Of a stretch of 64,000 nucleotides of DNA, positions 43,784 to 48,517 are shown piece after piece (position 1 is the first letter of the stretch; every line of letters begins with the position of its first letter). Source of the stretch: Thiocapsa marina 5811 (lineage in GTDB: Bacteria > Pseudomonadota > Gammaproteobacteria > Chromatiales > Chromatiaceae); contig NZ_AFWV01000013.1 in the NCBI RefSeq assembly GCF_000223985.1, positions 1 through 64,000 on the forward strand, read 5' to 3'. The notes beneath the pieces were generated by a model. That model saw only the letters and a program-made list of their open reading frames with translations, did no database searches and was not told where the DNA came from. The position numbers and the translations under genes were made by a program.

Positions 43784-43983
43784 TAAACCGCGCCCAGAGC
43801 GAGAAATGTAGTTTATTGGCTTGCTCCAGCTTTACGCCATGACGGACGTCTCGGTGAGGCACGGTTTAAGATATTGAAAAATATAATTTTGCATACCTTA
43901 AACCGCGTCGCCTCCAGCGCTCGTCGAGTCTGCCGGGGTCGATCCCATCCAAACACATCGCATACCGCGCCGGGCGCGGTTTA
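43784..43983 (+). repeat. Two-module TAAACCGCG repeat, copy E
   Basis: Complete plus-oriented copy of 200 bp: left module 43784-43868, AT-rich spacer 43869-43898 (30 bp, the longest), right module 43899-43983. The right module contains GATCCCATCC and CGCATACCGCG and differs from that of copy F at about ten positions by eye. It ends 9 bp before the glnS start codon, so the module end would lie in the ribosome binding region of glnS. Confidence 0.93.
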
Positions 43984-43992
43984 AGAGCATCA

Positions 43993-45666
43993 ATGAGCGA
44001 CACCGTCGAGACGCCACGCACCAACTTCATCCGCCAGATCATCGAGGCCGATCTGGCCGCCGGCAAGCATGCGCGAATCGTCACGCGCTTTCCTCCGGAG
44101 CCGAACGGTTATCTGCATATCGGGCACGCCAAGTCCATCGTCCTGAACTTCGGGCTTGCACAGACGTTCGGCGGGACCTGCAACCTGCGCTTCGACGACA
44201 CCAATCCGCACAAGGAGAACGTCGAGTTCGTCGACTCCATCAAGGCCGACGTGCGTTGGCTCGGATTCGACTGGGGCGATCGGGTCTATTTCGCGTCCGA
44301 TTATTTCGAGCAGCTCTACGCATTCGCCATCGAGCTGATCGAGAAGAGATTGGCTTACGTCTGCGACCTGAACGCCGAGGAGACGCGCAGCTATCGCGGG
44401 ACCCTGACCGAGCCCGGCCGGGACAGCCCCTATCGCGATCGCACGGTCGAGGAGAATCTGGACCTCTTCAAACGGATGCGCGCCGGCGAGTTCCCGGACG
44501 GCGCCCGTACCCTGCGTGCGCGCATCGACATGGCCTCCCCGAACATCAACCTGCGAGACCCGGTGCTCTATCGCATCAAGCACGGGGTCGTCCATCATCA
44601 GACCGGCTCCGCCTGGTGCCTCTATCCGACCTACGACTACACCCATCCCATCTCCGACGCACTGGAAGGCATCACGCACTCGCTGTGCACGCTCGAGTTC
44701 GAGGACCATCGCCCGCTCTACGACTGGTGCGTGAACAACGTCTCGGTGCCCTGCAAACCGCGCCAGATCGAGTTCAGCCGGCTGAATCTCGAATATACCG
44801 TCATGAGCAAGCGGCGCCTCACCGAGTTGGTCGGCGAGCGTCATGTCCACGGCTGGGACGACCCGCGCATGCCGACCGTCGCCGGACTGCGGCGTCGCGG
44901 CTACACGCCGGGTGCGATCCGTGACTTCTGCGAGCGGGTGGGGGTGACCAAGTCCGACAATCTTGTGGAAATGGCCCTGCTCGAAAGCACCATCCGCGAC
45001 GACCTGGATGCGACGGCGCCGCGTCGGATGGCCGTGCTGCGTCCGCTGAAGGTGGTCATCACAAACTATCCGGAGGGCCGAACCGAGTCGATCGAGGCGC
45101 GCAATCATCCCAAGGACGAGACACTGGGTCTGCGTGCGGTCCCGTTCGGGCGAGAGCTCTATATCGACCGGACGGACTTCGAGGAGATCCCGCCCAAGGG
45201 CTTCAAGCGTCTGATTCCGGGCGGCGAGGTGCGACTGCGCAACGCCTACGTGATCCGCTGCGAGGAGGTTGTGAAGGATGCCGACGGCGAGATCGTCGAG
45301 CTTCGGGTCAGTGCCGATCTGGACACCCTCGGCCGCAACCCCGAAGACCGCAAGGTGAAGGGCGTCATCCATTGGGTGTCGGCCGACCATGGGGTGCGGG
45401 CCGAGGTCAGGCTCTACGATCGGCTGTTCCGTGTCGCGGTCCCGGGCGCCGGCGGCGCGGATTTTCGGACCGACATCAACCCCGATTCATTGCAGATCCT
45501 CAGCGACGCCGTCCTCGAGCCGGCCTTGCAGGGCGCCGAGGCGGGCACGCGTTTTCAGTTCGAGCGCGAGGGCTACTTCGTCGTCGACACCGATTCGACG
45601 CCCGAGCGACCGGTCTTCAACCTCACCGTCGGGCTCCGCGATACTTGGGGCAAGAGCCGGTCATGA
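43993..45666 (+). CDS. glnS: Glutaminyl-tRNA synthetase
   Basis: Charges tRNA-Gln. The 557-residue enzyme is of usual length, with class I signatures PEPNGYLHIGHAKS near residue 37 and the KMSKS variant VMSKRRL near 272. C-terminal beta-barrel anticodon-binding domains end in FNLTVGLRDTWG. The ATG at 43993 directly follows repeat copy E; no separate SD stronger than AAGAG is visible, so the repeat end may be part of the leader. The stop overlaps the next gene's start (ATGA). Confidence 0.96.
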   Translation: MSDTVETPRTNFIRQIIEADLAAGKHARIVTRFPPEPNGYLHIGHAKSIVLNFGLAQTFGGTCNLRFDDTNPHKENVEFVDSIKADVRWLGFDWGDRVYFASDYFEQLYAFAIELIEKRLAYVCDLNAEETRSYRGTLTEPGRDSPYRDRTVEENLDLFKRMRAGEFPDGARTLRARIDMASPNINLRDPVLYRIKHGVVHHQTGSAWCLYPTYDYTHPISDALEGITHSLCTLEFEDHRPLYDWCVNNVSVPCKPRQIEFSRLNLEYTVMSKRRLTELVGERHVHGWDDPRMPTVAGLRRRGYTPGAIRDFCERVGVTKSDNLVEMALLESTIRDDLDATAPRRMAVLRPLKVVITNYPEGRTESIEARNHPKDETLGLRAVPFGRELYIDRTDFEEIPPKGFKRLIPGGEVRLRNAYVIRCEEVVKDADGEIVELRVSADLDTLGRNPEDRKVKGVIHWVSADHGVRAEVRLYDRLFRVAVPGAGGADFRTDINPDSLQILSDAVLEPALQGAEAGTRFQFEREGYFVVDTDSTPERPVFNLTVGLRDTWGKSRS

Positions 45667-46244
45667 CCGACGCGCGCGACGATCTCGATGCCGCTTCTGC
45701 CGGGATTCCCTGGCACGAGCGCCGCGCCGCGGATCTCGGGCTGCGTCTCTACGCCTCCTTCGTCTCCCCGGCGGCGATCCTGCGGGCGTTCCGGCGCGAC
45801 GCTCTGCAGGCCAGAACACTCGCTCAAGGTCTCTCGGAGGAGCAGGGGCGGGCTCGGGTGAGGATCGTGCGTTTTCCGGGGATCGAGGAAAGCAGCCGCG
45901 ACTGGTCCGTCTACATGACGCTCGACCATCTCGTCATGGTCAACACCGCGGTGATGGTCCTGATCCACGCGATCTGCACCGATCACAATCATGGCGCCGA
46001 GATCGGTCTGGAGGACGTCCGGCCGCACGATGATGCCGGGCCGGACCGGATTGTTGCGTTGGAAGCGGCGGTCGAGCGTTACACGGATGTGATCCAGCGA
46101 CTGGGCACGCTGCGCTCGCGCGAGCGCCACCCGCATCCTTGGTTCGGTCCGCTCAATGCACGTCAGTGGCACGCCGTTGCCGCGATTCACAATCGAACGC
46201 ATCGTGCGCAGATCGAAAAGATCCTGCGGCGCATCCAATCATGA
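45663..46244 (+). CDS. DinB-like/DUF1569-type protein
   Basis: A 193-residue protein with a likely four-helix DinB fold. Candidate metal-binding His residues lie in MTLDHLVMVNT, ICTDHNHG and the C-terminal HPWFGPLNARQWHAVAAIHNRTHRAQI spacing, as in DUF1569. The activity is unknown; relatives include thiol-dependent transferases. It overlaps both neighbours by ATGA junctions (glnS before, uracil-DNA glycosylase after), so the three genes form one translational unit. Confidence 0.75.
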   Translation: MTDARDDLDAASAGIPWHERRAADLGLRLYASFVSPAAILRAFRRDALQARTLAQGLSEEQGRARVRIVRFPGIEESSRDWSVYMTLDHLVMVNTAVMVLIHAICTDHNHGAEIGLEDVRPHDDAGPDRIVALEAAVERYTDVIQRLGTLRSRERHPHPWFGPLNARQWHAVAAIHNRTHRAQIEKILRRIQS

Positions 46245-47147: not shown

Positions 47148-47216
47148 ATGCGGGAACACTCGATTGCGCGTCGCGCCCGCGGCGCCACCTTCCGCCGATC
47201 ACCACCGGAGAGAACC

Positions 47217-48326
47217 ATGAAAGCACGCGCCGCCGTCGCCTGGGAGCCCGCGAAGCCTCTGTCCATCGAAGAGATCGATGTCGAGGGTCCGAAGGAGGGC
47301 GAGGTGTTGCTCAAGGTCATCGCCTCGGGCGTCTGCCATACGGACGCCTTCACGCTGTCCGGGCAGGATCCGGAGGGTGCCTTCCCTTGCGTGCTCGGAC
47401 ACGAAGGCGGATGCGAGGTGGTGGAGTGCGGGCCGGGCGTGAAGGGTCTGAAGCCGGGCGATCACGTCATCCCGCTCTACATCCCGGAGTGCGGCGACTG
47501 TGAATACTGTCACTCGACCAAGTCCAACCTCTGCCAATCCATCGCCTCGACGGTGTGGACCGGCTACATGCCGGACGGGACACGTCGCTTCTCGCACAAG
47601 GGCAAGCCGATCTTCCATTACATGGGCTGCTCGACCTTCTCCGAATATACGGTCGTGCCCGAGATCGCCTTGGCGAAGATCAACCCCGCCGCACCGCTCG
47701 ATAAGGTCTGCCTGCTCGGCTGCGGAATCACGACCGGCATCGGTGCGGTTTTGAACACGGCCAAGGTGGAGGCCGGATCGACGGTCGCGGTCTTCGGACT
47801 CGGCGGGATCGGCCTCTCCGTCATCCAGGGCGCCGTGATGGCGAAGGCGGCCCGCATCATCGGCATCGACCTGAATCCGGCCAAATTCGAGATGGCGCGT
47901 CAGCTCGGCGCCACCGACTGTATCAACCCGAGGGATCTCACCGGCAGCGTCACCGAGGCCATCGTCGAGATGACCCGGGGCGGCGTGGACTACTCCTTCG
48001 AGTGCATCGGCAACGTGGACGTGATGCGACAGGCGCTCGAGTGCTGCCGCATGGGATGGGGCGTGTCCACCATCATCGGCGTGGCGGGTGGCGGTCAGGA
48101 GATCCGGACACGGCCGTTTCAGCTCGTGACCGGCCGCACCTGGAAGGGCAGCGCCTTCGGCGGCGTCAAGGGTCGCAGCCAACTGCCCGGCTATGTCGAG
48201 CAATATCTCGCCGGAGAGATCGAGGTGGACCGGATGGTGACCCACACGATGCCGCTGGAGGACATCAACCGCGCATTCGATCTCATGCACAGCGGCGAGA
48301 GCATTCGCTCCGTGATCCTGTTCTAA
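47217..48326 (+). CDS. frmA: S-(hydroxymethyl)glutathione dehydrogenase / class III alcohol dehydrogenase
   Basis: Oxidises the glutathione adduct of formaldehyde with NAD. The 369-residue zinc MDR protein has catalytic zinc ligands in GVCHTDAF and GHEGG, and the structural zinc cysteines in CGDCEYCHSTKSNLC. The Rossmann motif is GLGGIGLSVIQG, and GVAGGGQEI and SAFGGVKGR are typical of class III. GGAG lies 7 nt upstream of ATG 47217. Its TAA stop (48324-48326) is the first three bases of repeat copy G. It works with fghA just downstream. Confidence 0.96.
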   Translation: MKARAAVAWEPAKPLSIEEIDVEGPKEGEVLLKVIASGVCHTDAFTLSGQDPEGAFPCVLGHEGGCEVVECGPGVKGLKPGDHVIPLYIPECGDCEYCHSTKSNLCQSIASTVWTGYMPDGTRRFSHKGKPIFHYMGCSTFSEYTVVPEIALAKINPAAPLDKVCLLGCGITTGIGAVLNTAKVEAGSTVAVFGLGGIGLSVIQGAVMAKAARIIGIDLNPAKFEMARQLGATDCINPRDLTGSVTEAIVEMTRGGVDYSFECIGNVDVMRQALECCRMGWGVSTIIGVAGGGQEIRTRPFQLVTGRTWKGSAFGGVKGRSQLPGYVEQYLAGEIEVDRMVTHTMPLEDINRAFDLMHSGESIRSVILF

Positions 48327-48517
48327 ACCGCGTCCAGAGCGACATGCGTCAGTTTTCATTCTGCGTTTGGCTTCGGAGATGTCCTCGACGCCGGTGAGAC
48401 GCGGTTTAGAATTTAATATTTTTTAAGACTTTAAACCGCGCCAGCTCCGACAGTCGTCGGGGCTGGCGCGGCCAAGTCATTCCAACACATCACGCACACC
48501 GCACCGGGCGCGGTTTA
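48324..48517 (+). repeat. Two-module TAAACCGCG repeat, copy G, inside the frmA-fghA pair
   Basis: Complete copy of 194 bp: left module 48324-48408, spacer 48409-48431 with AATATTTTTTAA, right module 48432-48517. Its first TAA is the stop codon of frmA. Its last base begins the AAGGAGG (48517-48523) that serves as SD of fghA. It fills almost the whole intergenic space. Confidence 0.93.

What the first reader, a model, noticed from the sequence alone, without database searches (positions are those of the whole stretch)
43784..48517. A dispersed two-module repeat family with conserved architecture
Seen directly: nine loci (5381, 12289, 25121, 26373, 43784, 46956, 48324, 52762, 54774) carry modules of about 85 bp closed by TAAACCGCG and CGCGGTTTA. 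Full copies (D, E, F, G) join a left module, an AT-rich spacer of 23-30 bp and a right module. Left modules share TCCRGAGC near the start; right modules share GATCCCATCC and a terminal CCGCGCCGGGCGCGG palindrome. Module lengths barely vary although internal sequence does. I know of no named family with this layout. It recalls enterobacterial mosaic REP elements (BIMEs) but is longer and more regular. No transposase is in the window.
Basis: seen in the sequence. Interest (0 to 1): 0.82.

Follow-up and report, generated by a model that had tools for sequence, protein, structure and literature searches.

The report
Paired-hairpin mobile repeat of purple bacteria
Purple sulfur bacteria carry hundreds of copies of a tiny, gene-less mobile DNA element made of two equal-length hairpin-like modules whose ends match each other, and even match the neighbouring host base, which hints at an unusual way of choosing or keeping an insertion site.

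Summary
Modules of 84-86 bp closed by TAAACCGCG/CGCGGTTTA occur 313 times in this genome (reversed-pattern control 0), in 8 of 11 genomes of the genus (Thiocapsa), and in high copy in 16 of 210 genomes of the order, five genera. A phylum sample matched only the own genome, 1 of 398.

The basic unit is a doublet of about 193 bp: L module, AT-rich spacer of 22-23 bp, R module. It is a non-autonomous mobile element: sites are filled in one species and empty in another, the target reads Y-TA-R, and at the two cleanest sites one TA became two.

The unexpected part: ends are complementary within each module (317 of 366 comparisons), not between the outer ends (19 of 183). The match reaches one base into host DNA, and an orthologous doublet in 8 genomes shows a compensatory change in place. 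Each module therefore behaves like a fixed-length hairpin with a 12-bp stem.

It resembles REPINs and TA-duplicating MITEs, but could not be filed under either. No mobilising transposase was found. New variant of a known kind.

The parts
43784..43983 (+). Full doublet, L 43784-43868, spacer 30 bp, R 43899-43983; directly upstream of glnS (43993-45666)
   Evidence: empty in G007, other L in G001 and G002, R only in G010
46956..47147 (+). Full doublet, L 46956-47039, spacer 23 bp, R 47063-47147
   Evidence: empty in G002 and G007
48324..48517 (+). Full doublet, L 48324-48408, spacer 23 bp, R 48432-48517; its first three bases TAA are the stop codon of the formaldehyde-dehydrogenase gene (47148-48326); next gene S-formylglutathione hydrolase from 48529
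   Evidence: other species hold a different subfamily or R only at the same base
26373..26564 (-). Full doublet, inverted: R 26373-26457, spacer 23 bp, L 26481-26564
   Evidence: empty with one TA in G001, G007, G010, filled in G002
54774..55036 (.). Old doublet upstream of ilvD: modules 54774-54856 (ends TGAAACGCG) and 54951-55036 (ends TGAACCGCG), with extra DNA between them in this genome
   Evidence: both modules in 8 of 11 genus genomes; ilvD named
25122..25239 (+). End of an L, spacer, full R 25155-25239
5381..5506 (-). Inverted R of 95 nt, spacer, end of an L
12289..12367 (+). L-type module of 79 nt, alone
35985..36068 (.). Old single module, orthologous in 7 genomes, ends partly decayed
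52762..52811 (+). Outer part of an R

Best explanation
A family of non-autonomous mobile DNA elements recognised as folded DNA. SHOWN: the unit is about 193 bp, two 84-86-bp modules in opposite orientation (L, R) with a 22-23-bp AT-rich spacer; it lies at Y-TA-R, with one TA at the cleanest empty sites and TA at both ends when filled; the ends of each module are complementary to each other over 12 bp and co-vary within the module, the outermost pair being formed by a host base and a spacer base. INFERRED: each module folds as a hairpin in single-stranded or cruciform DNA; a transposase acting in trans recognises the two hairpins, and the geometry of that complex fixes the arm length while the inside drifts. 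Cutting and joining use a 2-bp stagger at TA, as in IS630/Tc1-mariner elements. Pairing between the target base and the inner foot of the hairpin helps to choose the site or to stabilise the joint. Because the ends begin TAA or TGA, insertion at a stop codon leaves a stop codon, so many insertions are harmless. Many single modules are remnants of doublets.
For: One unit with sharp edges, up to 95% identical to the window copy, elsewhere in the genus. Adjacent modules in L-to-R order 43 of 46. Empty sites. Outer flanks Y..R in 134 of 141 doublets; within-module end agreement 317 of 366 against outer-outer 19 of 183 and inner-inner 25 of 183; outer base against inner base of the same module p=1.7e-8 (L) and 1.1e-5 (R), outer-outer p=0.86. 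Stem covariation on 35 modules: 97.1% of cells paired against 24-42% when slid, six pairs with changes on both sides. Matched rare ends 6 and 4 against 0.06 expected each. 53 of 139 elements at a stop codon, odds ratio 4.7 against empty YTAR sites. 81 of 152 singles have an AT-rich flank on one side, as a doublet with an unrecognised partner would.
Against: No transposase was found. Insides show no common fold. Of five comparable empty sites only two show the single TA intact. An orthologous old module has lost matching in several species. No strand bias of wobble pairs, 55 GU against 44 CA. On the 35-module alignment the measure 'further pair types' does not exceed its shuffles (500 of 500 as high).
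Confidence: 0.55

Rival explanations
1. An ordinary MITE of the IS630/Tc1-mariner kind: a transposase reads only the outer ends, and the likeness of all ends is inherited TIR sequence with no role for hairpins.
For: TA doubling at the two cleanest sites and Y-TA-R target; small bacterial MITEs often have TA ends and TSDs (PMC2229807, passages); ISY100, an IS630-family element, duplicates TA (PMC2170065, passages).
Against: Outer ends agree in only 19 of 183 informative comparisons while ends of one module agree in 317 of 366. Inner base and host base co-vary. TG/CA ends cannot be a direct duplication of TA. Thirty DDE_3 loci: no inward TAAACCGCG pair; TIR candidates read in ten of them have other sequences. 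G003 has 341 exact modules but no DDE_3 or DDE_Tnp_1 match, with 91% completeness.
Confidence: 0.2
2. A REPIN-like element moved as single-stranded DNA by a Y1 (RAYT) transposase.
For: REPINs share conserved inverted ends, fixed length, free inside and compensatory changes (PMC3116915, passages). Y1 genes occur in 11 of 11 genus genomes.
Against: Y1 genes are equally present in the three genomes without modules. 0 of 20 Y1 loci has a module within 300 bp, a weak test because GTAG-type repeats of the same genomes also fail it, 0 of 16. No GTAG or CGTC-tagged short hairpin at the ends. TA doubling is not expected of Y1 enzymes (recalled).
Confidence: 0.15
3. Matching is made by hairpin-templated mutation (quasipalindrome correction) after insertion; it says nothing about transposition or function.
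For: Matching is between the nearest inverted repeats and includes a host base. R copies with inner C facing G score lower, so look older, p=0.012. Two orthologous sites show paired changes in place.
Against: Matching stops at -1/+1; at -2/+2 it is at or below expectation except in a mixed group of 20 (0.40 against 0.28). L copies with the matched G are not older, p=0.44. Ends of one old module drifted apart.
Confidence: 0.15
4. A host-used structure: the hairpins are kept in place for an RNA or chromosome function.
For: At the ilvD doublet stem columns are more conserved than insides, 41 of 48 against 54 of 125, p=4e-7, with a compensatory change.
Against: Right coding flank is as conserved, 35 of 40, and the left flank is 28 of 40, so the excess is over the insides only. 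Presence is patchy, 8 of 11 species and empty sites. No orientation bias to genes, 11 same and 15 opposite; no Rfam match at the modules.
Confidence: 0.1

Closest known systems
REPINs (PMC3116915, passages)
   Same: Inverted conserved ends, fixed length, free inside, compensatory changes, high copy, extragenic
   Different: Ends are not REPs with a tetranucleotide tag; two such units form one 193-bp element; Y-TA-R target; no link to a RAYT shown
TA-ended bacterial MITEs: RUP, Correia/NEMIS, ERIC (PMC2229807, passages)
   Same: Under 200 bp, no gene, TA at the termini, target duplication
   Different: Two modules each with its own matched ends; outer ends do not match each other; no partner IS found, as RUP has in IS630-Spn1
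CIR repeats of Caulobacter and Brucella (PMC2229807, section 7)
   Same: Two inverted-repeat arms joined by a linker; TA at termini
   Different: About 110 bp, alphaproteobacteria, conserved GANTC site; mobility unclear there
IS608/IS200-IS605 (PMC5934647, passages)
   Same: End hairpins, and target bases that pair with bases at the hairpin foot
   Different: There a tetranucleotide is read by a guide 5' of the hairpin, with insertion 3' of the target; here one base pair beyond TA is seen, and TA is doubled
GTAG-tagged REPs (PMC3733652, passages)
   Same: Repeat ends often supply a stop codon to a flanking gene; dimers
   Different: 20-40-bp hairpins with a tag; here TAA or TGA from the foot of a long hairpin

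Membership tests
REP/REPIN with RAYT | Two inverted ends at a set distance that can pair, with a variable inside | tested here: met
   (per module)
REP/REPIN with RAYT | Ends are REPs: short hairpin with GTAG or CGTC tag | tested here: not met
   Common end is 11-12 nt, T[A/G]AANCGCG[T/C]C, with no short hairpin of its own in most modules; only R outer ends hold a small palindrome
REP/REPIN with RAYT | Genomic link to a Y1/RAYT gene | tested here: inconclusive
   0 of 20 within 300 bp, but the positive comparison also failed, 0 of 16
IS630/Tc1-mariner MITE | TA target, duplicated on insertion | tested here: inconclusive
   Five sites: two with one intact TA, one of the right length with TA substituted, one a base short, one ambiguous
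IS630/Tc1-mariner MITE | Outer terminal inverted repeats match each other | tested here: not met
   They share the core AACCGCG, but agree in 19 of 183 comparisons at positions that vary
IS630/Tc1-mariner MITE | Partner IS with the same ends | tested here: inconclusive
   0 of 30 DDE_3 loci has an inward TAAACCGCG pair; 48 hits exist, so not all were read
IS200/IS605 | Y1 transposase acting on end hairpins | not testable with these tools
   Needs an assay
IS200/IS605 | Target read by pairing with a guide in the element | tested here: inconclusive
   Host base and inner base co-vary, also in young groups, p=1.7e-5, but changes in place occur too
CIR | GANTC in a loop; about 110 bp; alphaproteobacteria | tested here: not met
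   Length 190-194 bp in 129 of 141; hosts are Chromatiaceae. GANTC was not counted
Rfam RNA families | Match above gathering score | tested here: not met
   Only tRNA-Gly in the window; no module match at E up to 5 in 43700-48600

The most novel reading that the evidence does not exclude
The element chooses its target by DNA base pairing: on each strand the inner foot of the hairpin (TA-R) pairs with the target (Y-TA), while joining still doubles TA. This would be a second DNA-guided mode of transposition, joining hairpin recognition to a TA-duplicating reaction, with target preference set by one inner base of the element.
Probability: 0.2. Interest if true: 0.88.

Novelty: new variant of a known kind. 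Interest (0 to 1): 0.62.

Why it matters
Hundreds of copies per genome are a natural record of an unusual transposition process. They allow a test, from sequence alone, of whether a small mobile element is recognised as folded DNA: matching follows the single module and not the outer ends, and it includes a host base. If the target pairing is real, DNA-guided insertion becomes testable in a system unrelated to IS608. The stop-codon habit shows how an element can spread in gene-dense genomes with little harm.

Tried and rejected
Common inner RNA fold: medoids of 24 clusters, both strands, z-scores of the inside mostly near 0, with one medoid at about -4.4. Transposase partners: Y1, DDE_3, DDE_Tnp_1; none with these ends except an IS that interrupts a module. 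An autonomous form L..gene..R: two candidate intervals in 1.25 Mb, one a 79-bp gap and one a truncated L with 1159 bp to an R. Rfam, tRNA or tmRNA (one tRNA-Gly elsewhere). Plasmids and phages: no match (near relatives of the window's genome may be left out there). Gene orientation: no bias. Synteny of the own contig C62 with a 400-kb stretch of G004: 38 of 48 elements had no ortholog there. The scan was spoiled by runs of N in G008 and by overlapping windows; I used it only to see the variant ends, and repeats the count with a separate criterion for each end. One search stopped with an error at its last step, so self-complementarity of the spacer was not measured. The 35 modules were picked by hand for diversity, some of them found by requiring matched ends; choose each end separately. 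In one search two of the four A-type pairs are one orthologous locus in G000 and G004. Genes come from my own simple ORF caller. The wish to compare young and old copies gave a split answer.
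Full report
WHAT IS THERE. The end motif TAAACCGCG occurs 20 times in the window where 0.25 is expected. It closes modules of 84-86 bp; four full copies join two modules through an AT-rich spacer. In the own genome (5.59 Mb, 62 contigs) TAAACCGCG-N60..85-CGCGGTTTA is found 313 times, the reversed pattern 0 times.

WHERE ELSE. Eight of 11 genomes of the genus have 121-589 exact copies; G005, G006 and G009 have none; 0 of 27 genomes of other genera in that set matched. With ends AACCGCGYC, 35 of 210 genomes of the order (all in one family) matched, in 12 of 61 genera. 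Sixteen of the 210, in five genera, have 29 or more; 19 have 1-3, and the reversed control gave one match in each of six genomes, so single matches are near noise. A phylum sample matched only the own genome, 1 of 398. Contig lengths identify G002 as T. roseopersicina DSM 217, G003 as the MAG S07.Bin152, G008 as Thiocapsa KS1 and G134 as Thiobaca trueperi. That all these genera are Chromatiaceae is recalled.

THE UNIT. A search with the window region finds the complete L-spacer-R as one match with sharp edges, up to 95% identical to the window copy. Adjacent modules are in the order L to R in 43 of 46 cases. Of 156 distinct doublets, 141 remain after removal of likely orthologous sites; 129 of them are 190-194 bp long. 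The spacer is 22 or 23 bp in 106 of 124 oriented doublets and 86% AT. The insides are diverse: 24 clusters among 194 modules of 83-87 bp, median identity of the inside 0.63 against 0.59 for shuffled insides.

LENGTH AND ENDS. In 854 kb, 68 of 99 inward pairs of exact ends (18-400 bp apart) are at 84-86 bp and 21 more at 190-195 bp, the outer ends of doublets. In 1.25 Mb the peak at 83-87 bp is 101 against 0.9 expected. Rare variants come as matched pairs: AATCGCG with CGCGATT 6 and AAACGCG with CGCGTTT 4, each against 0.06 expected; mixed combinations total 7. With each end chosen separately, 155 modules agree with themselves at position 2 in 144 (expected share 0.72), position 5 in 147 (0.81) and position 10 in 138 (0.48); at positions 1 and 11 the excess is small. 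From position 12 inwards there is no excess.

MATCHING BELONGS TO THE MODULE. At positions that vary within a doublet, an end agrees with the other end of its own module in 317 of 366 comparisons; the two outer ends agree in 19 of 183 and the two inner ends in 25 of 183 (smaller set). A composite read by its outer ends predicts the opposite. On 35 diverse modules, 97.1% of the cells of the 12-pair stem are standard pairs, 24-42% when one side is slid; six pairs change on both sides; the covariation score is reached by 0 of 500 shuffles. One measure, further pair types, does not exceed its shuffles (9 against a mean of 10.8).

ONE HOST BASE TAKES PART. The outer flanks are Y before and R after the element in 134 of 141 doublets. 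The outer base is complementary to the spacer base at the foot of the same module (L p=1.7e-8, R p=1.1e-5); outer against outer p=0.86, inner against inner p=0.56. One base further out there is no excess, except in a mixed group of 20 singles. The counts fit wobble pairing: read on the strand where the host base is 3', an inner T faces A 168 and G 76 times, an inner C faces G 47 and A 7 times. In four groups of young copies inner A goes with T 34 and C 18, inner G with C 21 and T 3, p=1.7e-5. The groups differ in inner base, so family effects are possible, but the association also holds inside L1 (p=0.012) and L3 (p=3e-6).

MOBILITY. Five distinct sites could be compared with a nearly empty relative (details). 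At window 26373 and at a site of G002 the empty relative has one TA where the filled one has TA at each end. At 46956 the empty site has the expected length, but TA is substituted. At 43784 it is one base short and has no TA. One site is ambiguous. At 43784 and 48324 other species hold a different subfamily, or only the R module, at the same base. Deletion between the direct repeats TAAACCGCG would leave a solo R; the exchange of subfamilies suggests gene conversion or renewed insertion (inference).

CHANGES IN PLACE. Upstream of ilvD (named), 8 of 11 genomes of the genus hold both modules of an old doublet; in five of them 19-20 bp lie between the modules, in G000, G004 and G001 more DNA. Stem arms have 41 of 48 invariant columns, insides 54 of 125, p=4e-7; the left flank has 28 of 40 and the right, coding, flank 35 of 40, so the stems are conserved relative to the insides, not beyond coding sequence. 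In module 1 one pair is G-C in five genomes, A-T in two, G-T in one. At 26373 G000 has C-G where G002 has T-A at the foot of R, and C-G where G002 has T-G at the foot of L. Against this, an old module orthologous in 7 genomes has lost matching in several.

GENE CONTEXT. With a simple gene caller, 56 of 147 gene ends facing an element have their stop codon exactly at its first three bases; doublets between co-directional genes show no bias, 11 same and 15 opposite. Of 139 elements 53 sit at a stop codon (44 TAA, 8 TGA, 1 TAG), 69 elsewhere between genes and 17 in called coding sequence; empty YTAR sites divide 182, 1113 and 790; stop against intergenic has odds ratio 4.7, p=1e-13. In the window the dehydrogenase gene 47148-48326 ends on the TAA of the element at 48324.

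WHO MOVES IT. Not found. Y1 genes are in 11 of 11 genomes of the genus, with or without modules; 0 of 20 fetched loci has a module within 300 bp, a weak test, since GTAG-type repeats fail it too, 0 of 16. Inward exact ends more than 300 bp apart are found in 0 of 30 Y1, 0 of 30 DDE_3 and 1 of 30 DDE_Tnp_1 loci; the one is an IS inside a module. G003 has 341 exact modules but no DDE_3 or DDE_Tnp_1 match; it is a draft of 91% completeness. That IS630 itself prefers CTAG is recalled.

PRINT. I saw passages, not whole papers: REPINs share set length, free inside and compensatory changes (PMC3116915); TA-ended MITEs (PMC2229807) and CIR with two arms and a linker (its section 7); stop codons from GTAG repeats (PMC3733652); pairing with the target in IS608 (PMC5934647); TA duplication by ISY100 (PMC2170065). 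Searches joining Chromatiaceae, Thiocapsa or Lamprocystis with repeat words listed no description of this family; most subscription papers are not held.

VERDICT. A real, old and recently active family with an architecture I did not find described. It works like a pair of REPIN-like hairpins with a TA reaction. It is not filed as a REPIN or as an IS630 MITE, because a defining feature of each was tested and not met.

Noticed in passing
L159-L163, for example G000:C62 about 71204, 84070, 96587: GTAG-type repeats (GTAGGGTGGACGAGCG and its inverse about 60 bp away), 43 hits of a loose pattern in 400 kb of the own genome; a separate REP-like family.
   Followed up: partly
window 43784 and 48324; orthologs in L077-L081, L098: Different module subfamilies at the same insertion base in different species, with the ends kept; looks like exchange between copies.
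   Followed up: partly
L170:1091-1177 (G000:C62:281092-281176): A module whose inside is itself a strong hairpin, z about -4.4, unlike the other medoids.
   Followed up: no
G010:C1:4825361-4825885 (L380): An IS with a DDE_Tnp_1 transposase has landed inside an R module; GGATCGGCCC is present on both sides.
   Followed up: no
G000:C62:211244-211519 and 287082: Three modules in a row in which two share one TA, as if one element had inserted at the TA edge of another.
   Followed up: no
L056, L060, L062, L072, L074: A TG-ended module lies at the same distance, about 1.3 kb, from a Y1 gene in five genomes, probably one orthologous locus.
   Followed up: no
window 49487-49928: Two copies of a 118-nt repeat, 72% alike, 324 bp apart.
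   Followed up: no
window 25080-25115: Short CGTTGT/ACAACG repeats beside the module at 25122; similar runs lie near modules in G001.
   Followed up: no
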